Both the position numbers and the translations under genes were made by a program. A stretch of 8,911 bases of DNA from a bacterium (GTDB lineage: Bacteria; UBP15; UBA6099; DSWB01): positions 1 to 8,911 of the forward strand of contig JAGUYV010000175.1 in the NCBI GenBank assembly GCA_020061125.1, given 5' to 3'. Under the pieces are notes generated by a model. It was not told the DNA's origin, made no database searches, and saw only the letters and a list, made by a program, of their open reading frames with translations. Shown one piece after another: positions 1-8,911 of the stretch (the stretch's first letter is position 1; each line of letters opens with the position of its first letter).

Positions 1-1041
1 CAGCGCGCGCTGGGCAAGGCGCTGCGCGCCATGGGCGTGATCGCGGCCGTGGCCCTGCCCCTGTCCGTGCTCTTCGGCGTGGGTTTGAGCGTGCCCATCG
101 TGCGCCCATTGCGCCAGGTCGTGAACAGGATTCAGGACATCGCCCGGGGCGGCGACCTGCGCGCCGAAGTTCCCGTGCGGCGTCTCGATGAGATCGGACT
201 TCTGGCCCGCGCGTTCAACGACATGTCCCGCGCACTGGACGAGCGCGACAAAGCGCTGCGCGCCAGCGCCGAGGAACTGCGCATCAACCAGGAACAGCTC
301 ATTCAGAGCGGCAAACTGGCCGCGCTCGGCGAACTCGCCGCGGGCGTGGCCCACGAAATCGGAAACCCCTTGAGCGCCATTTCGGGTTACGCCCAGATGT
401 TGCGCAAAGGTAAAATCGGCGATGACGCGAAGCTGGAATTCCTCATCGAGATCGAGAAGGAAACCGAGTTCATCGAACGCATCATTTCGGATCTGCTGGA
501 CTTTTCGCGCCCGGCCACGGGCGGCCCGCACCCCGTGGATCTCGTGGAAACTCTGGATGCGGCTCTCAAGACAGCCAGCGCGCACAAGGCGTTCAAAGGC
601 GTGACCGTAACGCGCGAAGTGGATGAAAACACGCCCGCGGTCATGGCCAACCGCAAGGAAATTCTGCAGGTGGGCATCAACCTGTTCATGAACGCGGCGC
701 AGTCCATGCCCGCGGGCGGGGAAATTTCCCTGACTGTAACGGGCATGAACGACTCCGCGGTGTTCACCGTGGCGGACCGCGGCCCGGGCGTGCCCGGACA
801 CCTGCTGGACAAAATCTTCGACCCGTTCTTCACCACCAAGCCCACGGGCGTCGGAACCGGGCTTGGGCTTTCCATCTGTTACCGGATCATCGAAAAACTG
901 GGCGGCCGCATCGCATACGCGCAGCGCCCGGGCGGGGGCGCCTCGTTCACGGTCACTCTGCCCGCGGCGCCGGCTGCGGCCCGTTCGCAACAAGAGGGCA
1001 TTACGGGAGGATCTCATGACGGAACGCATTCTGGTCATTGA
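1..1041 (+). CDS. Sensor histidine kinase, C-terminal part (5'-truncated by window edge)
   Basis: Transmembrane sensor kinase that autophosphorylates on histidine and passes the phosphate to the response regulator encoded next. The frame is open from base 1, so the N-terminal sensor region and probably a first membrane helix lie outside the window. Numbering from the first codon: a membrane helix at about 11-34, a HAMP linker at about 30-80, a charged coiled-coil stretch at 78-104, then HisKA with phospho-acceptor H118 in the motif AHEIGNPL. E119 and N122 form the ExxN-type phosphatase motif. The HATPase domain follows (about 213-321), with an N box around N227/N231, G1 box DRGPGVP (259-265), F box FDPFFTTK (273-280) and G2 box GVGTGLGL (283-290). 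All catalytic boxes are intact. The last nine residues are encoded in DNA shared with the regulator's first codons. It resembles NtrB-like/ZraS-like kinases; the signal sensed cannot be inferred without the missing sensor domain. Confidence 0.95.
   Translation, partial: QRALGKALRAMGVIAAVALPLSVLFGVGLSVPIVRPLRQVVNRIQDIARGGDLRAEVPVRRLDEIGLLARAFNDMSRALDERDKALRASAEELRINQEQLIQSGKLAALGELAAGVAHEIGNPLSAISGYAQMLRKGKIGDDAKLEFLIEIEKETEFIERIISDLLDFSRPATGGPHPVDLVETLDAALKTASAHKAFKGVTVTREVDENTPAVMANRKEILQVGINLFMNAAQSMPAGGEISLTVTGMNDSAVFTVADRGPGVPGHLLDKIFDPFFTTKPTGVGTGLGLSICYRIIEKLGGRIAYAQRPGGGASFTVTLPAAPAAARSQQEGITGGSHDGTHSGH
1005..1010 (+). promoter_or_regulatory. Ribosome binding site of the response regulator
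   Basis: GGGAGG lies 5 nt before the ATG at 1016 and inside the end of the kinase gene. It decides the start: the open frame reaches back to 863, but the upstream stretch is kinase sequence read out of frame, while the protein from 1016 begins directly with a receiver domain (MTERILVIDD). Confidence 0.8.
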
Positions 1042-2437
1042 CGACAAGGAAAACATCTGCAAGCTGCTGTCCGCGCATCTGCAGAGCGAGGGGTATCAGG
1101 TTGATACCGCGCCCGACGGCGAACAGGGAACCGCCATGTTCGATTCCGGGGTTTACGACCTGGTGATCACGGATGTAAAAATGCCGGGCATGGACGGATT
1201 GGAAGTGCTGCGCCGCATCAAGGACCGCAGCCCGGACACGGTGGTGGTGATGATCACCGCATTCGCGGACATGGACGACGCCATCGCGGCCATGAAAATG
1301 GGCGCATTCGACTACCTCAAGAAACCGTTCAAGCTCGAGGAGATTCAGGCCACGGTGGAAAAGGCGCTCGAAAACCGCCGCCTGCTTCAAGAAAACCGGC
1401 GCCTGCGCCAGGAAGTCGAACAGAAGTACTCCTTTGAAAACATCCTGGCGCGCAGCAAGCCCATGCAAAATGTGTTCACGCGCATCGAGCGCGTGGCCGC
1501 GGCCAACAGCGCCGTGCTCATCACCGGAGAAACCGGCACGGGCAAGGAACTCGTGGCGCGCGCCATCCATTACAACAGCCTGCGCAAAACCGCCCCGTTC
1601 GTGGTGGTCAACTGCGGCGCGATCCCCGTGACGCTCATCGAGAGCGAGCTGTTCGGGCATGTGCGAGGCGCATTCACCGACGCCATCGCCAACAAGCCCG
1701 GCCGGTTCGAGGACGCCCACGGCGGCACCCTGTTCCTGGATGAAATCGGCGAACTGGACATCTCCGTGCAGGGCAAACTGCTGCGCGCGCTCCAGGAAGG
1801 CGAGGTCTCGCGCATCGGCGAAGCGCGCACCCGCAAGGTGGATGTGCGCGTGATCTGCGCCACCAACAGGAATCTCGAACAGGAAATTCTCAAAGGCGGA
1901 TTCCGCAAGGACCTGTTCTACCGCGTGAATGTGGTGCCCATTGCGCTGCCGCCGCTGCGGGACCGGGCCGAGGACATCCCCCTGTTGCTGAACCATTTCC
2001 TTTCCATGTTCACCGCCCAGCACAATCGCGGCGAGATGCAATTCGGCGCCAACGCCATGGCCCGCCTGCTTTCCTACTCGTGGCCGGGCAATGTGCGCGA
2101 ACTCATGAATGTTGTCGAGCGGTGCGTGCTCATGAGCGAGAACCCGATCATCTCCGAGCCTGACCTTCCCGCGGAAATTCTGGCCGCGCCCCGGCCCGCC
2201 GCGGACGGCGCGCCCGTGGAAACCCTGCTCGGCGCAGAGGGCAAGGTGCGCGCCGTAGTGCCCGCGGACGAGGTTTCCCTCAAACGCGCCATGGACCAGG
2301 CCGCGGAAGTCATCGAGCCGGAACTCATCCGGCGCGCTCTTTCCGCCGCTTCCGGCAACAAGGACAGGGCCGCGGCCATTCTCGACATCAGCCGCCGCTC
2401 CCTGTTCTACAAACTCAAGCAGTACGGACTGAACTGA
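1016..2437 (+). CDS. NtrC-family sigma-54-dependent response regulator
   Basis: Cytoplasmic transcription activator of 473 aa, a usual length for the family. Receiver domain 1-120: acidic pocket D9/D10, phospho-acceptor D53 in ITDVKMPGMDG, T81 and K103. A short coiled-coil linker covers about 118-138. The AAA+ sigma-54 interaction domain (about 142-372) has Walker A GETGTGKE (171-178), the sigma-54 contact loop GAFTDA (218-223; textbook form GAFTGA), Walker B GTLFLDEIGE (237-246) with D242/E243, arginine-finger candidates R297 and R303, and the sensor II segment WPGNVREL with R361. A Fis-type helix-turn-helix (about 430-471) ends in the motif ISRRSLFYKLKQYGL. The start at 1016 is supported by a good Shine-Dalgarno and by the domain start. 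The gene overlaps the kinase by 26 nt, so the two form a cognate pair. It should open sigma-54 promoters by ATP hydrolysis once phosphorylated; its targets are unknown, with the downstream genes as obvious candidates. No sigma-54 promoter is visible in the window. Confidence 0.95.
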   Translation: MTERILVIDDKENICKLLSAHLQSEGYQVDTAPDGEQGTAMFDSGVYDLVITDVKMPGMDGLEVLRRIKDRSPDTVVVMITAFADMDDAIAAMKMGAFDYLKKPFKLEEIQATVEKALENRRLLQENRRLRQEVEQKYSFENILARSKPMQNVFTRIERVAAANSAVLITGETGTGKELVARAIHYNSLRKTAPFVVVNCGAIPVTLIESELFGHVRGAFTDAIANKPGRFEDAHGGTLFLDEIGELDISVQGKLLRALQEGEVSRIGEARTRKVDVRVICATNRNLEQEILKGGFRKDLFYRVNVVPIALPPLRDRAEDIPLLLNHFLSMFTAQHNRGEMQFGANAMARLLSYSWPGNVRELMNVVERCVLMSENPIISEPDLPAEILAAPRPAADGAPVETLLGAEGKVRAVVPADEVSLKRAMDQAAEVIEPELIRRALSAASGNKDRAAAILDISRRSLFYKLKQYGLN

Positions 2438-2452
2438 CGCCCGCGCCGCTCC

Positions 2453-2457
2453 AAGGA
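2453..2457 (+). promoter_or_regulatory. Ribosome binding site of the radical SAM gene
   Basis: AAGGA lies 6 nt upstream of the ATG at 2464, within the 26-nt gap after the regulator's stop. The gap is too short for an obvious promoter plus leader, which favours co-transcription with the two-component genes. Confidence 0.65.
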
Positions 2458-2463
2458 TTCTTC

Positions 2464-3990
2464 ATGAAACTGCTGCTCGTTCAGCCGCCCAAACGGTTCT
2501 GGCCCTACATCAGTGAAGGGGACAACTATCTGCTGCCGCAGTGGATGGTGTGCCTGGCCGCGGCAGCGCGCTCCGCAGGTTACGAAACCCGCATGATTGA
2601 TTGCGCGCCGCGCAGAACCGGCTGGAAAAGCCTGGCCCGCGAAATCGCGGACTGGCAACCCGACTTCGTGGGCGTGGGCGAAAACCACGCGCTGTACGCC
2701 GACGAATCCCTGCGCGCCCTCAAGCTCGCCAAAGAGGTGCGCCCGGGCGCCGTGACCATCGCCGGCGGCACGCATTTCTCCAATACCGCAGAGCAAACCC
2801 TGGCCCACGGGTTCGTTGATTTCATCGCCACGCGCGAGGGGGAAATCACGCTTGTGGACCTCATGAACGCCGTGCGCGACGGCCGCGATCCCGAAACCGT
2901 GCAGAGCATCATCTTCAGCCGGGACGGGCAGATCACGGCCACGCCCCCGCGCCCGCTCATCGAGGATCTCGATTCCCTGCCCATGCCCGCCTACGACATC
3001 GCCTCCATGGAGCTTTACGGCAACTCCAGATTCCTGTTCTCGCCGGGCGGGGCCACCATCTTCCACTCCCGGGGCTGCGTGAGCAACTGCCGCTTCTGCG
3101 CCTGGTGGCTTCAGATGGCGGATGTCAAAGTCAAAGACGACGGCAAGCAGATTCTCAAGCCGCGCTGGCGCACCAAGAGCGTGGATTACACCGTGTCCGA
3201 AATCGAGCTGCTGGCGGAAAAATACAACAAGAAGTGCCTGGTGTTCGTGGACGAGTACTGGAACTATGACAGCGCGTGGAACGCGGCGTTTTCCGAGGCC
3301 TTGATTAAAAAGAATCTGGGCGTGGTGTGGTTCGCGTTCATGCGCGCGGACGCCATCGTGCGCGACGAGGAGAACGGCGTGCTCGAAGCCATGGTGCGCT
3401 CGGGCATGGTTCATGTGTGCGTGGGCGTGGAGCACACGGACGCGGACAAGCTTGCCTCCATGGGCAAGGGGTTCTATTCCTCGGACACCTCCACGCGCTG
3501 CTTCCATATCCTGCGCGACAAGTATCCCGGCGTGTTCCGCCAGGGCACCTTCATCGTGGGCACGCGCCAGGAAACCCGCGAGAGCATGCTGAACCAGGTG
3601 CGCTACGCGCGCCATCTGGATCTGGACTACCCCGGCTTCCACCCCATCACGCCCGTGCCCGGCACCGATGTCTGGCGCGAATACGATGAAAACGGCTGGA
3701 TCGAGACCAAGGATTTCCGCGAGTACGACTGGATGACGCCCATCATCAGTTCCGAGCACATGACGCGCTCGGAGATTGAAGATTTTCTGATCAATTTGAG
3801 CAAGAAATTCGTCAGCCCGCGGTGGTTTCTGCGCGGCATCACAAGCCGCAGCGCGTACCGCCGCCGCATGTATGTATGGTGGCTCATCGTAACATTCCGC
3901 GTGATCTGGGACTCGATCCGCCGCCGCGTGAAGCCGTTCACCACGGAATCCTATTCGTTTCTCGTGAAGCCGGAGTGGTATGACGACTGA
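2464..3990 (+). CDS. B12-binding-type (class B) radical SAM protein, substrate unknown
   Basis: 508 aa enzyme that should bind a [4Fe-4S] cluster and cleave S-adenosylmethionine to a radical. An N-terminal Rossmann-like B12-binding-type domain (about 1-155) starts with the typical KLLLVQPP and contains the GGTHFSNT loop (101-108). I see no DxHxxG cobalamin-ligand motif, so any cobalamin would lack a lower histidine ligand, as in several known members. The radical SAM core (about 195-420) has the cluster motif CVSNCRFC (C205, C209, C212), followed by an unusual aromatic run AWWLQM. The core ends with the family signature TPVPGTDVWREYDENGW. The C-terminus (about 455-490) holds a hydrophobic, tryptophan-rich segment flanked by arginines, a candidate membrane-surface anchor. 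The wider family includes methyltransferases, the BchE cyclase and the hopanoid enzymes HpnJ/HpnR. Linkage to a polytopic glycosyltransferase suggests a lipid, glycan or natural-product substrate, but no reaction can be assigned. Its last 11 nt overlap the next gene. Confidence 0.9.
   Translation: MKLLLVQPPKRFWPYISEGDNYLLPQWMVCLAAAARSAGYETRMIDCAPRRTGWKSLAREIADWQPDFVGVGENHALYADESLRALKLAKEVRPGAVTIAGGTHFSNTAEQTLAHGFVDFIATREGEITLVDLMNAVRDGRDPETVQSIIFSRDGQITATPPRPLIEDLDSLPMPAYDIASMELYGNSRFLFSPGGATIFHSRGCVSNCRFCAWWLQMADVKVKDDGKQILKPRWRTKSVDYTVSEIELLAEKYNKKCLVFVDEYWNYDSAWNAAFSEALIKKNLGVVWFAFMRADAIVRDEENGVLEAMVRSGMVHVCVGVEHTDADKLASMGKGFYSSDTSTRCFHILRDKYPGVFRQGTFIVGTRQETRESMLNQVRYARHLDLDYPGFHPITPVPGTDVWREYDENGWIETKDFREYDWMTPIISSEHMTRSEIEDFLINLSKKFVSPRWFLRGITSRSAYRRRMYVWWLIVTFRVIWDSIRRRVKPFTTESYSFLVKPEWYDD
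3972..3975 (+). promoter_or_regulatory. Ribosome binding site of the glycosyltransferase, inside the radical SAM gene
   Basis: GGAG lies 4 nt before the ATG at 3980, which itself overlaps the end of the radical SAM gene (stop 3988-3990). The arrangement supports translational coupling and this choice of start. Confidence 0.5.
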
Positions 3991-5992
3991 AGAGCCAAAA
4001 CAGGACTCCGCAGCGCAACGCTGGTGGCCGCTGATCTGCGCGCTGGCCGGGGCGCTGTTTTTCGCGGCCGCCTGGCCGTCGCTGGACGCGCACGGGCTGT
4101 GGATTGACGAGATGCGCACGGGCTACGCCACGATAACGCACCATGCGCTCCGCATGTCCGTGCTGCGTTACATTGTGCTGAACGATCCCGCGGGACCGCT
4201 GCACACGCTGCTCACCGTCGGGTTCTGTTCCGTGGCCGGGAATTCCGACGCCATGCTGCGCCTGCCGCCGCTGGCGTTCATGTCCCTGTGCGTGTGCGTG
4301 TTCGGCATGCTCGCGCGGCGCTTTCTCGCGCAGGGCGCGTCGTTCGCCGCCCTGCTCCTGTTCGCGTTTTCCATGAACACGCTGTACTTCGCGCAGGAAG
4401 CGCGGCCATACGCCATGCTCCTGTTCTGGTCCCTGCTTTCGTATTTGCTGGCGACCCTGGAACCGGACAACCCGCGCCGCCGGGCGGGCCTGTTCTCCCT
4501 CGCGTTCATCCTCGGCTCGTACACGCACATCGTATTCGCGTTCGTGATCGCAAACTGCGTGCTGCACGAATGGCTCGTGGACCGGAACGCACCCGGCGCC
4601 GGCAATTCCGGAGCGCGCCCGGCGGCGCTTGCTCTGCTCTGGCAGCGGATGCCCGCAACCGCGGGAGCGGCGGCCGCGGCCCTGGCGTATCTGCCCTGGT
4701 TCATTGCGCTGCTCACCCTCTCCGCGGATCCGTCGCGCACGCCGGATGTCACGCATTCCCTGGGCAAAACCGCGCTGGTTGCTTTCAGCGGCCTGTTCAC
4801 GGGCAATGCGTACGCGCCCATGAAATTCATGGCCATGGCTTCGGCCGCGGCCATGATCCTCTGGTTGTACGGGCTGGCGCGGTTTCCCGTGCGCGGGCGA
4901 TGCGGCCGCCGCACTCTGGCGCTGTGGACCGCCGCACCCATGCTCCTCGCGTTCGCGGCTTTCGCCCTGTTTCGAGGCGTATACAATTTCTTTCACTTCC
5001 GTTATCTTTTACCCGTGTTCCCCATGCTCATCCTGGCTATGGGCGCGGGCCTCGGCGCGTTCGTTCAGGACAATGCCGTGAACCTGCTGCGCCGCAGGGG
5101 CGAGCCTTTGCCCGAGCGCATCGCGGACCTGTGGCTCCGGCCCTCGGCCCTGCCGAAATTCCTTTTCGTTTTTGTGCTCCTTGTGTTTTTTTTCGGCAAT
5201 TTCATGAACATCGGCAGATACAGCCGGACACCCCTGCAGGACTGGCGTGGCGCTTACGATTTCATTTCCCAAAACGCGCGCCCGCCCCACGACACGATTC
5301 TGGTTTACGGCATCGCGGCGCCCATGATCTCCTACTACGCAAACAGGGAAGGCATTGCCGGAAAACGAGTCTTCACACTCAAGAGCGCGGACAAAGTCCG
5401 GGACATTTACGACGCGTTCGCATCCACGGACAACGCGCGCCTGATTTTTTACGAGGACCGCTGGCGAACGGAACTCAATCCGGTTCAGCACAAATGGTTC
5501 GCGCCCCTGTGCCGCAACAAAACCGTTCTGCCCGGCCGCTTCGGGGACATCACTATCTGCTCTTCAACAAATCCCATGCTGTTTGACACCCTGTCCCTGT
5601 GCTTCGGGCATGACCCGCGGCGCAGCGATCAAACCTGGGGTTCCCATTGCGGCGCAAAGGAAACCGGATGCCTGAAATTTCTGTGCGCGGGGAAAGCGTG
5701 CCGTGCGGGGTTCGACAATCCCGCGCCCGGCCCGGTCTCCATCGCCGTGACGCAACCCCTGCCCGCGGAACTGTCATTTCGTGCGCGCCGGGGCGCGGCG
5801 GATTTTTCATTTCACGCCGGACACAATGCGTACCTGACCACGGCCCTTGCCGCGGGCGCTTTTGATCTGGCGCTGGATCCCGCGGCGGGCGTATTCGAGC
5901 CTTTTTGCGTTGACCTGATCCGGCGCGGCGGCATGGCGCTGCCCGGCCCGGCAGATGAAGCGCCTCAATCCGCGGAATGGATCCGCAAATGA
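3980..5992 (+). CDS. GT39/PMT-like integral membrane glycosyltransferase (GT-C fold)
   Basis: 670 aa inner-membrane protein, expected to move a sugar from a polyprenyl-phosphate donor to a lipid, glycan or protein acceptor on the outer face of the membrane. The first helix (about 16-34) is followed by the acidic loop motif WIDEM (D43/E44), the catalytic position of GT-C enzymes. Further hydrophobic helices span to about residue 411 (roughly 11-12 in total). Family signatures seen are QEARPYA (139-145) and FRYLLPVFPML (340-350). After the last helix, DWRGAYDFI starts a C-terminal domain of about 250 residues that should be extracytoplasmic. It carries eight cysteines (511, 527, 541, 557, 564, 569, 574, 643), four of them spaced Cx6Cx4Cx4C, and no similarity I recognise. 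The start overlaps the radical SAM gene by 11 nt; the stop overlaps the next gene. Relatives include ArnT-type aminoarabinose transferases and protein O-mannosyltransferases; donor and acceptor are not predictable. Confidence 0.85.
   Translation: MTTEEPKQDSAAQRWWPLICALAGALFFAAAWPSLDAHGLWIDEMRTGYATITHHALRMSVLRYIVLNDPAGPLHTLLTVGFCSVAGNSDAMLRLPPLAFMSLCVCVFGMLARRFLAQGASFAALLLFAFSMNTLYFAQEARPYAMLLFWSLLSYLLATLEPDNPRRRAGLFSLAFILGSYTHIVFAFVIANCVLHEWLVDRNAPGAGNSGARPAALALLWQRMPATAGAAAAALAYLPWFIALLTLSADPSRTPDVTHSLGKTALVAFSGLFTGNAYAPMKFMAMASAAAMILWLYGLARFPVRGRCGRRTLALWTAAPMLLAFAAFALFRGVYNFFHFRYLLPVFPMLILAMGAGLGAFVQDNAVNLLRRRGEPLPERIADLWLRPSALPKFLFVFVLLVFFFGNFMNIGRYSRTPLQDWRGAYDFISQNARPPHDTILVYGIAAPMISYYANREGIAGKRVFTLKSADKVRDIYDAFASTDNARLIFYEDRWRTELNPVQHKWFAPLCRNKTVLPGRFGDITICSSTNPMLFDTLSLCFGHDPRRSDQTWGSHCGAKETGCLKFLCAGKACRAGFDNPAPGPVSIAVTQPLPAELSFRARRGAADFSFHAGHNAYLTTALAAGAFDLALDPAAGVFEPFCVDLIRRGGMALPGPADEAPQSAEWIRK
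5989..5992 (+). promoter_or_regulatory. ATGA stop/start overlap coupling two genes
   Basis: The TGA of the glycosyltransferase (5990-5992) overlaps an ATG at 5989, a typical translational coupling junction. TGGA at 5978-5981 sits 7 nt upstream as a weak ribosome site. An in-frame ATG at 5977 is the alternative start and would add four residues (MDPQ), but GGA lies directly against it, too close to serve as a Shine-Dalgarno. Confidence 0.55.
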
Positions 5993-7677
5993 ACGGTAAT
6001 GGACAAAAAGCAAATCCGGCTGCGCCCTCGCCCTGGCCCCTGTGGCTGCTGCTTGCCGATGCGGCGGTGTACGCGCTCGCCGCGTACCACTGCGCGCTGC
6101 TGGTGTTTTTCTGCAGGGACGGCGCCGTGGGGCCGGGCATGCGTTTTGCGGGCATGAGCCTTGCCCTTGTGGTGGCCATGCTCGGCTACGCCGCGCGCCA
6201 CGCTCTGGGATCCGCATGGAAACGGCTCCTGGTTCTCGACGCCCTGGCGTTCCTGTTTCTGGCCGCATGGCTGCCGTGGAAATTCTCCGGCGTGCAGACC
6301 GCCAAAGGGCTGTCCTTCGCGTGGGCGGCCATTGAGTGGTGGAAACTGCCGCCCAATCTGGAGTTGATGTTCCGCGCGTCGCCCGGCGGATTCCTGTTGT
6401 TCTGGGTGGCCGTGCTGGGACTCATCGAACTCATGCGCCGAGGCATGCGCAAAACCGCCGCCGCCGTCATCATCGCGTTTTCCGCGTGGTACTCATTTCA
6501 GCTTGCGGGCATGGAGGCCGGCGTGCGCCTGCCCGCGTATCTGTTCTTCGTGATCGCGCTGCTGGCGGCTACAGCAGCAGGGTACAGGGGCTATCTGCGA
6601 ACCTTTGCGCGCGTGCTGGTCATGGACGGCGCATTTCTTGTGATCTTCCTTTTTTACATCGGCGCCCTGCCCCTGGCCGCGCCCGGTCCGCCCGCGAACG
6701 CGCCCGGCGTCACGCGCATTTACCCGGCGCGAAACGCGCGCGCGGATTTCCCTCTCAAGTTTCTGCGAGACATGCACGCGGACACCCGCTCCGGCTTCCT
6801 GTTCACCGCCTACGGCCCCACCTCCGGCATCGTGCGCGTCAGCATGCAGTCCGGCCGCGCAGACATCATTCACAACCCCGGCATCGTGCGCGTGATGTGG
6901 ACCCGCCCGGAACTGGACCATGTGTTCGCCCTGGACTGGCAATATGCGGACTTCTACAAAATTAAAAAGCACCCATTCAAAATCCTCTCCAAAACGGACA
7001 TCCATGACAGCGTGCTGGTCACACCCATGAGCTACGCCATCACCCGCGGCAAGCTCTATGTGGTAAGCACGGACCTGCCCGCTCTCACGCGCCTGGACCT
7101 TGCCACCCTCGAAAAGGAAGCGCGCCTGGACTTCCGCGCCCTGGGACTCACGGCGTTCCGCAGCGGCGCCTGGAAATGCATTATTGACGAAAAGAAACAA
7201 AAACTCTTTGTGGAAATGGGTCCGGTGGATCTCAAGGGCCGTTATCGCATCGCGCGCGTGGACCTCAAGTCTTTTTCCGTCGAGAAAACCGCATACCTGC
7301 CCGAAGGCGGCCTGGAACTTGTTCGCGTTCCCTGGGACAACGCTTTAATCGCACCATCGTTTTTTTCTGAAAATATGTTCGTGCTCGACGCGGACACGCT
7401 CGAAATCCGGCGCGTGATCAAGGGGCCGCTCACATGCCGCAACCTGATTGCGGACACGGAACGGAGACTGCTTTACGGAACCAGCTACACACGCGGGCGG
7501 CTTGCGGCCATCCGCTACAGGGACGGTAAGACCTTGCGCGAGATCCCCATCGGCCGCAAGCCGTCCTCCCTGGCCTTTGCTCCAGAGCAGGACACCCTTT
7601 ACGCGGGCAGCGCGCGCGGCATCTTCCGCATCAGCATCCCGGCTCTGCTGCATGGTCAACCATCAGAAACGCAATAG
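5989..7677 (+). CDS. Polytopic membrane protein with C-terminal beta-propeller-like domain, function unknown
   Basis: 562 aa from the ATG at 5989 (566 aa if it starts at 5977; residues below count from 5977). I do not recognise a named family. The N-terminal third is hydrophobic, with likely helices at about 20-45, 55-73, 84-101, 137-153, 160-178, 185-203 and 213-234, and a tryptophan-rich loop (about 102-130) between the third and fourth. From about residue 255 to the end the chain is soluble and built of repeating beta-strand units of roughly 35-45 residues; I count about seven by eye. The last is the clearest, close to the YVTN/NHL consensus: IGRKPSSLAF, then DTLYAGSARGIFRI (525-552). The second unit is aromatic-rich (WQYADFYKI). 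A propeller with an odd number of preceding helices could lie on either side of the membrane; from cytoplasmic N-terminal topology it would be extracytoplasmic. The gene is coupled to the glycosyltransferase by a 4-nt overlap and is the last of the operon. It may sense, scaffold or bind the pathway's product; this is inference. Confidence 0.75.
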   Translation: MNGNGQKANPAAPSPWPLWLLLADAAVYALAAYHCALLVFFCRDGAVGPGMRFAGMSLALVVAMLGYAARHALGSAWKRLLVLDALAFLFLAAWLPWKFSGVQTAKGLSFAWAAIEWWKLPPNLELMFRASPGGFLLFWVAVLGLIELMRRGMRKTAAAVIIAFSAWYSFQLAGMEAGVRLPAYLFFVIALLAATAAGYRGYLRTFARVLVMDGAFLVIFLFYIGALPLAAPGPPANAPGVTRIYPARNARADFPLKFLRDMHADTRSGFLFTAYGPTSGIVRVSMQSGRADIIHNPGIVRVMWTRPELDHVFALDWQYADFYKIKKHPFKILSKTDIHDSVLVTPMSYAITRGKLYVVSTDLPALTRLDLATLEKEARLDFRALGLTAFRSGAWKCIIDEKKQKLFVEMGPVDLKGRYRIARVDLKSFSVEKTAYLPEGGLELVRVPWDNALIAPSFFSENMFVLDADTLEIRRVIKGPLTCRNLIADTERRLLYGTSYTRGRLAAIRYRDGKTLREIPIGRKPSSLAFAPEQDTLYAGSARGIFRISIPALLHGQPSETQ

Positions 7678-8897: not shown

Positions 8898-8911
8898 AGA
8901 TCGGAAGAGCG
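8898..8911 (+). other. Illumina adapter remnant (sequencing artefact)
   Basis: The last 14 bases, AGATCGGAAGAGCG, are identical to the start of the TruSeq universal/read-2 adapter. They are not genomic. The final four in-frame codons of pepA on the minus strand would be read from this adapter and should be removed. Confidence 0.93.

What the first reader, a model, noticed from the sequence alone, without database searches (positions are those of the whole stretch)
1..7677. Two-component sigma-54 regulator in one unit with a radical SAM enzyme, a GT-C transferase and a membrane/propeller protein
Five genes on one strand are separated by at most 26 nt, with three overlaps. I know of no named pathway with this set. 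The combination suggests a signal-controlled modification of an envelope lipid or glycan: radical chemistry on the substrate, sugar transfer on the outer face, and a membrane propeller of unknown role. This is the best candidate for an undescribed system here.
Basis: partly seen in the sequence, partly recalled or inferred. Interest (0 to 1): 0.62.

Follow-up and report, generated by a model that had tools for sequence, protein, structure and literature searches.

The report
B12 radical enzyme–sugar transferase gene pair
The five-gene run is really there, but only two of its genes (a vitamin-B12 radical enzyme and a membrane sugar transferase) stay together in related bacteria, so it is best read as a small uncharacterised cell-envelope-modifying pair with ordinary neighbours rather than a new five-gene system.

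Summary
In detail: a sensor kinase (5' end cut by the contig), an NtrC-type regulator, a radical SAM enzyme, a GT-C-like transferase and a membrane/β-propeller protein lie on one strand, with one 26-nt gap and three overlaps.

The reading as one signal-controlled system holds only in part. In the sister family the kinase–regulator pair is orthologous but lies elsewhere. Propeller relatives occur in each of those genomes, never beside the enzyme. No sigma-54 site was found in the window.

The conserved core is the radical SAM–GT-C pair, adjacent in all six genomes that carry it (three genera, two families). The enzyme is conserved (63–65% identity); its GT-C partner is not (20–24%). The enzyme is a B12-binding radical SAM protein, nearest to BchE and HpnJ but far below their cut-offs, with a constant C-terminal membrane-interface-like segment ending KPxWYD. 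Relatives (37–52%) occur in 22 of 384 genomes of the Omnitrophota phylum; 12 of 22 loci have a GT-C within 4 kb, against 17 of 105 for other B12 radical SAM genes.

Most likely the enzyme alters a membrane lipid or lipid-linked sugar and the GT-C glycosylates outside the membrane. Substrate and chemistry remain unknown. Hopanoid and haem roles are disfavoured.

The parts
1..1041 (+). sensor histidine kinase, 5' end cut by the contig end (HAMP, HisKA, HATPase_c); neighbour, not core
   Evidence: orthologue 50-52% beside the regulator in the sister family
1016..2437 (+). NtrC-type sigma-54 response regulator (receiver, AAA+, Fis HTH); neighbour, not core
   Evidence: orthologues 59-62% elsewhere in five sister-family genomes
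2464..3990 (+). B12-binding radical SAM enzyme, BchE/HpnJ-like but outside named families; core gene
   Evidence: AAGGA ribosome-binding site in front
2524..2862 (+). B12-binding domain of the radical SAM enzyme (residues 21-133)
   Evidence: PF02310 52.7 bits, cut-off 32.1
3076..3099 (+). CxxxCxxC iron-sulfur motif (C205, C209, C212), invariant in seven aligned relatives
3853..3918 (+). C-terminal aromatic/hydrophobic segment (AYRRRMYVWWLIVTFRVIWDSI), proposed membrane-interface anchor
   Evidence: present in 27 of 28 sequences
3967..3984 (+). C-terminal KPxWYD signature
3980..5992 (+). GT-C-like polytopic glycosyltransferase (PMT_2-like N-terminal half, extracytoplasmic C-terminal part); core gene
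   Evidence: positional partner in G002-G006
4106..4111 (+). acidic DE motif (D43 E44) of the first outer loop, expected GT-C catalytic site
   Evidence: E44 invariant in five sequences
5977..7677 (+). membrane protein (about 6-8 helices) with C-terminal β-propeller; next to the pair in this genome only. Start may be 5989
6769..7635 (+). β-propeller domain of that protein (about residues 265-553); matched repeats lie in profile positions 430-557
   Evidence: profile matches to 1l0q (3e-11) and YncE 3vgz (2e-10)

Best explanation
The functional core is a two-gene pair: a B12-dependent radical SAM enzyme (2464-3990) and a GT-C glycosyltransferase (3980-5992). Proposed working: the radical SAM enzyme sits on the cytoplasmic face of the membrane, held by its constant C-terminal aromatic segment, and performs a radical change (methylation, or a ring or rearrangement reaction as in BchE and HpnJ) on a membrane lipid or a polyprenyl-linked sugar; the GT-C enzyme then transfers a sugar from a polyprenyl-phosphate donor onto an acceptor on the outer face. 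The kinase-regulator pair and the membrane-propeller protein have come to lie next to the pair in this lineage only; they may be co-transcribed here but are not part of a conserved system. Shown: domains, gene order, conservation of the pair, separability of the other parts. Inferred: membrane attachment, substrate class, order of reactions, shared pathway.
For: Radical SAM orthologues 63-65% in five order relatives, each followed directly by a GT-C gene (gaps of about 19 nt, or a 4-nt overlap) although the GT-C itself is only 20-24% identical. Relatives of 37-52% in 22 of 384 genomes of the Omnitrophota phylum. 12 of 22 of those loci have a PMT_2 match within 4 kb, against 17 of 105 control B12 radical SAM loci in the same genomes (Fisher p 3e-4) and about 1.2 expected by even placement. 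Neighbours include polyprenyl-phosphate-sugar-type GT2, UbiA prenyltransferase and other polytopic membrane proteins. The YxWW...KPxWYD C-terminal segment is kept in 27 of 28 sequences. HK-RR and propeller orthologues are found elsewhere.
Against: No substrate evidence. The window GT-C scores just below Pfam's PMT_2 cut-off (23.6 against 26.1) and its model failed (pLDDT 40). Distant loci are related to one another and lie in gene islands, so the enrichment p-value is optimistic; at 1 kb the difference from control loci is not significant. In the Omnitrophota clade nearest the window only 1 of 7 loci has a PMT_2 match within 4 kb. In genus g3 the enzyme also sits directly behind a haem-synthesis run.
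Confidence: 0.45

Rival explanations
1. One reading: all five genes form one signal-controlled envelope-modification system, with the NtrC regulator switching on radical SAM, GT-C and propeller proteins.
For: Tight spacing, three overlaps, no terminator-like site in the junctions; 26-nt gap between regulator and enzyme.
Against: Regulator orthologues 59-62% lie elsewhere in five genomes; propeller homologues never beside the enzyme; no sigma-54 site in the window (1 weak match against 5.9 expected).
Confidence: 0.12
2. The radical SAM enzyme is a tetrapyrrole enzyme (BchE-like, anaerobic haem or chlorin chemistry); the GT-C neighbour is incidental.
For: Best NCBIfam match is BchE (176 bits); in genus g3 the gene follows hemC, cobA-hemD, two SPASM radical SAM genes, hemB and a class-III aminotransferase (hemL-like).
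Against: Far below the BchE cut-off (481); that context is seen in one genus only; the window organism's haem-cluster-type radical SAM genes lie on another contig and four of six other carriers tested (G005, G060, G112, G285) have none at 1e-30; Omnitrophota loci show no such genes; the GT-C partner is kept.
Confidence: 0.12
3. The enzyme is a hopanoid-type lipid enzyme (HpnJ or HpnR-like).
For: HpnJ and HpnR among the next best family matches; HpnJ is one of the non-methylating B12 radical SAM enzymes (PMC13142503).
Against: No squalene-hopene cyclase in any of 12 carrier or relative genomes; scores far below cut-offs (121 against 578; 90 against 650).
Confidence: 0.02
4. The pair makes or modifies a peptide or small secreted natural product rather than an envelope lipid; the GT-C glycosylates that product or a protein.
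For: Ranthipeptide-type SPASM radical SAM genes stand next to some relatives (PapB-like, L151); B12 radical SAM enzymes often modify peptides (family knowledge).
Against: No precursor-peptide gene was noticed in the window or the order relatives (not searched systematically); the window lacks a SPASM enzyme; the conserved C-terminal membrane-like segment.
Confidence: 0.15

Closest known systems
BchE (TIGR02026, anaerobic Mg-protoporphyrin monomethyl ester cyclase)
   Same: B12-binding domain followed by a radical SAM domain over almost the whole length (176 bits)
   Different: Far below the cut-off (481); no chlorophyll context; own C-terminal YxWW...KPxWYD segment; GT-C partner gene
HpnJ (TIGR03471, hopanoid B12 radical SAM)
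   Same: Domain order; acts on a membrane lipid (family knowledge; HpnJ listed as non-methylating in PMC13142503)
   Different: 121 bits against 578; no hopanoid cyclase in the genomes
OxsB, AprD4, TokK, CysS and related solved B12 or radical SAM enzymes
   Same: Profile matches over the radical SAM or B12 part (6fd2 2e-15, 5ul2 3e-12, 7kdx 3e-12)
   Different: Enzymes of antibiotic pathways; different neighbours
PMT_2 / Agl23-type GT-C glycosyltransferases (PF13231, TIGR03663)
   Same: Polytopic, acidic DE motif in the first outer loop, partial PMT_2 match
   Different: Weak match (below cut-off in the window, 28.1 against 26.1 in a relative); poorly conserved; long extracytoplasmic tail
YncE / surface-layer YVTN β-propellers (1l0q, 3vgz)
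   Same: Propeller repeats in the C-terminal half of the last gene
   Different: Fused to about 230 residues of membrane helices; found only in this order in the 60 genomes searched, apart from a short weak match in G041

Membership tests
B12-binding radical SAM superfamily | B12-binding domain plus radical SAM domain over curated cut-offs | tested here: met
   PF02310 52.7 (cut-off 32.1), PF04055 40.8 (29.5)
B12-binding radical SAM superfamily | CxxxCxxC cluster motif | tested here: met
   C205, C209, C212 invariant in seven relatives
BchE (TIGR02026) | score over 481.35 | tested here: not met
   176.5 bits
HpnJ (TIGR03471) | score over 577.6, and hopanoid synthesis in the genome | tested here: not met
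   121.1 bits; squalene-hopene cyclase 0 of 12 genomes
GT-C glycosyltransferase (PMT_2) | Pfam PMT_2 cut-off 26.1 | tested here: inconclusive
   window 23.6; positional partners G002 28.1 and G005 23.4
GT-C glycosyltransferase (PMT_2) | acidic motif in first outer loop, many membrane helices | tested here: met
   D43/E44 with E44 invariant in five; 7-10 hydrophobic segments
GT-C glycosyltransferase (PMT_2) | GT-C fold | tested here: inconclusive
   model pLDDT 40, not searched
NtrC-type sigma-54 response regulator | receiver, sigma-54 AAA+ and Fis-type HTH domains | tested here: met
   PF00072, PF00158, PF02954 over cut-off
NtrC-type regulator controlling this operon | sigma-54 promoter before the operon or the enzyme gene | tested here: inconclusive
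   only one weak match, inside the enzyme gene on the minus strand; DNA before the kinase is off the contig and untested
β-propeller (YVTN/PQQ type) | propeller repeats detectable by profile | tested here: met
   hmmsearch of alignment A3: 1l0q 3.2e-11, 3vgz 1.7e-10
   only radical SAM + GT-C co-occur

The most novel reading that the evidence does not exclude
The enzyme, a second B12 radical SAM enzyme (one lies within 500 bp of it in at least 10 of 22 Omnitrophota loci, and a likely orthologue is on another contig of the window genome, C64:12404-13801) and a GT-C make up an undescribed pathway that radically rearranges a polyprenyl-linked sugar or membrane lipid and glycosylates it, shared across deep candidate phyla, perhaps by gene transfer.
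Probability: 0.2. Interest if true: 0.62.

Novelty: new variant of a known kind. Interest (0 to 1): 0.38.

Why it matters
Few B12-dependent radical SAM enzymes have a known substrate, although several that act on lipids or tetrapyrroles (BchE, HpnJ, ladderane enzymes) carry out unusual ring chemistry. A family with a fixed C-terminal signature and a repeating GT-C neighbour in uncultured phyla gives a concrete enzyme-partner pair to test for new envelope chemistry. The negative part also matters: tight spacing in one fragmented genome bin did not predict a conserved five-gene system.

Tried and rejected
AlphaFold models of the propeller protein (single sequence, pLDDT 43) and the GT-C (five-row alignment, pLDDT 40) were too poor to search, so no fold search was run. 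Sigma-54 promoter search: nothing above chance. Hopanoid role: no squalene-hopene cyclase. Haem role: the haem-gene neighbourhood is limited to one genus, and four of six other carriers lack the haem-cluster-type radical SAM gene at the threshold used. Paper searches found no description of a B12 radical SAM + GT-C pair or of this lineage's enzyme. Sequence profile of the GT-C against solved structures gave nothing.

Full report
WHAT IS THERE. The window is one complete contig (C434) of a fragmented genome bin of 4.12 Mb, 513 contigs, 79% complete. Its close relatives carry titles such as 'bacterium UBP15_UBA6099' and 'bacterium ADurb.Bin236', a poorly known candidate lineage. On the plus strand lie a sensor histidine kinase (1-1041, start off the contig), an NtrC-type regulator (1016-2437), a radical SAM protein (2464-3990), a GT-C-like membrane protein (3980-5992) and a membrane/β protein (5977 or 5989 to 7677); a leucyl aminopeptidase follows in the opposite direction. 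Codon-position GC supports all of these frames. No terminator-like site falls in the junctions and no sigma-70-like promoter was found.

DOMAINS. The radical SAM protein also has a B12-binding domain (PF02310, PF04055, both over cut-off). Among curated families it is nearest to BchE (176 bits against a cut-off of 481) and then HpnJ (121 against 578), so it belongs to neither. Against solved structures its profile matches AprD4, OxsB, TokK and CysS. The GT-C-like protein has a partial PMT_2 match just under the cut-off (23.6 against 26.1), while its positional partner in G002 is over it (28.1); the acidic motif of the first outer loop is kept. The last protein has 6-8 membrane helices and a C-terminal β-propeller, the latter shown by a six-sequence profile that finds the surface-layer YVTN propeller 1l0q (3e-11) and YncE (2e-10).

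WHICH GENES TRAVEL TOGETHER. The radical SAM protein has 63-65% orthologues in five order relatives, G002-G006. In all five the next gene is a GT-C (about 19-nt gaps, or a 4-nt overlap in G005), yet the GT-C proteins are only 20-24% identical to the window's. So the position is conserved while the sequence of the partner is not. The remaining three genes do not follow. The kinase-regulator pair has clear orthologues (kinase 50-52%, regulator 59-62%, next paralogues 50% or less) in the same five genomes, in a different place: after a gene that reads as tilS (named from its sequence, not by a family search) in four of them, and before unrelated proteins. The propeller protein has a 22-26% homologue in each sister-family genome, a more distant relative G001 has one too, and the window genome has a second copy (38%, C416); none lies by the radical SAM gene. 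No sigma-54 site was found in the window. The five-gene unit is therefore local to this lineage as far as held genomes show.

DISTANT RELATIVES. A search of 384 genomes of the Omnitrophota phylum found 22 with a 37-52% relative; a further genome, G041, has one at 37%. A tree places the window lineage (100/100) with a group of seven Omnitrophota sequences, apart from a second group of sixteen plus G041; this is compatible with transfer between phyla, but the supports at the joining branches are 90-97 and the direction is not shown. Their neighbourhoods are rich in membrane glycosyltransferases, GT2 enzymes, further B12 radical SAM genes, and in four loci a UbiA prenyltransferase with a variant radical SAM gene. 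A PMT_2 match lies within 4 kb of 12 of 22 of these loci, against 17 of 105 loci of other B12 radical SAM genes in the same genomes (Fisher p 3e-4) and about 1.2 expected by even placement (23 loci including G041). The loci are not independent, the listings were truncated at the weak end, and at 1 kb there is no significant excess, so this is moderate evidence. Another B12 radical SAM gene lies within 500 bp of the enzyme gene in at least 10 of 22 loci; the window genome has a candidate orthologue of the commonest such partner (41%) on contig C64, not beside the enzyme.

MECHANISM. All but one of 28 sequences carry, near their C-terminus, an aromatic, hydrophobic segment (YxWW... in most) followed by a KPxWYD-type end. 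Such a segment is typical of proteins lying on the membrane surface; this is inference from composition, not shown. Together with the GT-C partner it suggests that the enzyme acts on a membrane lipid or a polyprenyl-linked sugar on the inner face and the GT-C transfers a sugar on the outer face. GT-C enzymes use polyprenyl-phosphate sugars (family knowledge). Whether the radical step is methylation or a ring or rearrangement reaction, as in BchE and HpnJ (PMC13142503), cannot be told from sequence.

ALTERNATIVES. A tetrapyrrole role is suggested by genus g3, where the gene follows a haem-synthesis run, but this is one genus; the window genome's own relatives of those radical SAM genes are on another contig, and four of six other carriers have none at the threshold used (some of those genomes are incomplete). 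A hopanoid role is disfavoured by the absence of squalene-hopene cyclase in 12 genomes. A peptide product cannot be excluded, since SPASM maturase-like genes stand beside some relatives.

NOVELTY AND VERDICT. No paper in the searched library describes such a pair, but the library is partial. The enzyme is an unnamed family inside a well-known superfamily, so I call it a new variant of a known kind.

Noticed in passing
window 8898-8911: The contig ends in AGATCGGAAGAGCG, the Illumina adapter sequence; the first residues of the aminopeptidase frame are therefore probably adapter, not genome.
   Followed up: yes
L152:13257-19601 (G203:C15 from about 70,660): A PMT_2 domain starts an uninterrupted frame reported as 24,479 codons long, three genes downstream of a relative of the radical SAM enzyme: a giant gene in an Omnitrophota genome.
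   Followed up: no
L044:14864-18319: A 1152-residue protein joins a PMT_2 GT-C part to an NHL propeller repeat, about 4 kb from the G041 relative of the enzyme; an echo of the GT-C next to a propeller protein in the window.
   Followed up: partly
L039:912-15629: In genus g3 the enzyme gene stands directly after hemC, cobA-hemD, two SPASM radical SAM genes, hemB and a hemL-like aminotransferase, and is followed by GT-C, DUF3866, an AAA ATPase and a VWA protein.
   Followed up: partly
L148, L150, L153, L156: A UbiA prenyltransferase followed by a variant radical SAM gene lies just before the enzyme in four Omnitrophota loci.
   Followed up: partly
G000:C64:12404-13801: The window genome has a 41% match to the second B12 radical SAM gene that flanks the enzyme in Omnitrophota; here it lies on another contig.
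   Followed up: partly
L154:6601-7785 and repeats in neighbouring loci: Several loci carry tandem copies of a U32-peptidase-like protein beginning MKLSVPTNW next to the enzyme.
   Followed up: no
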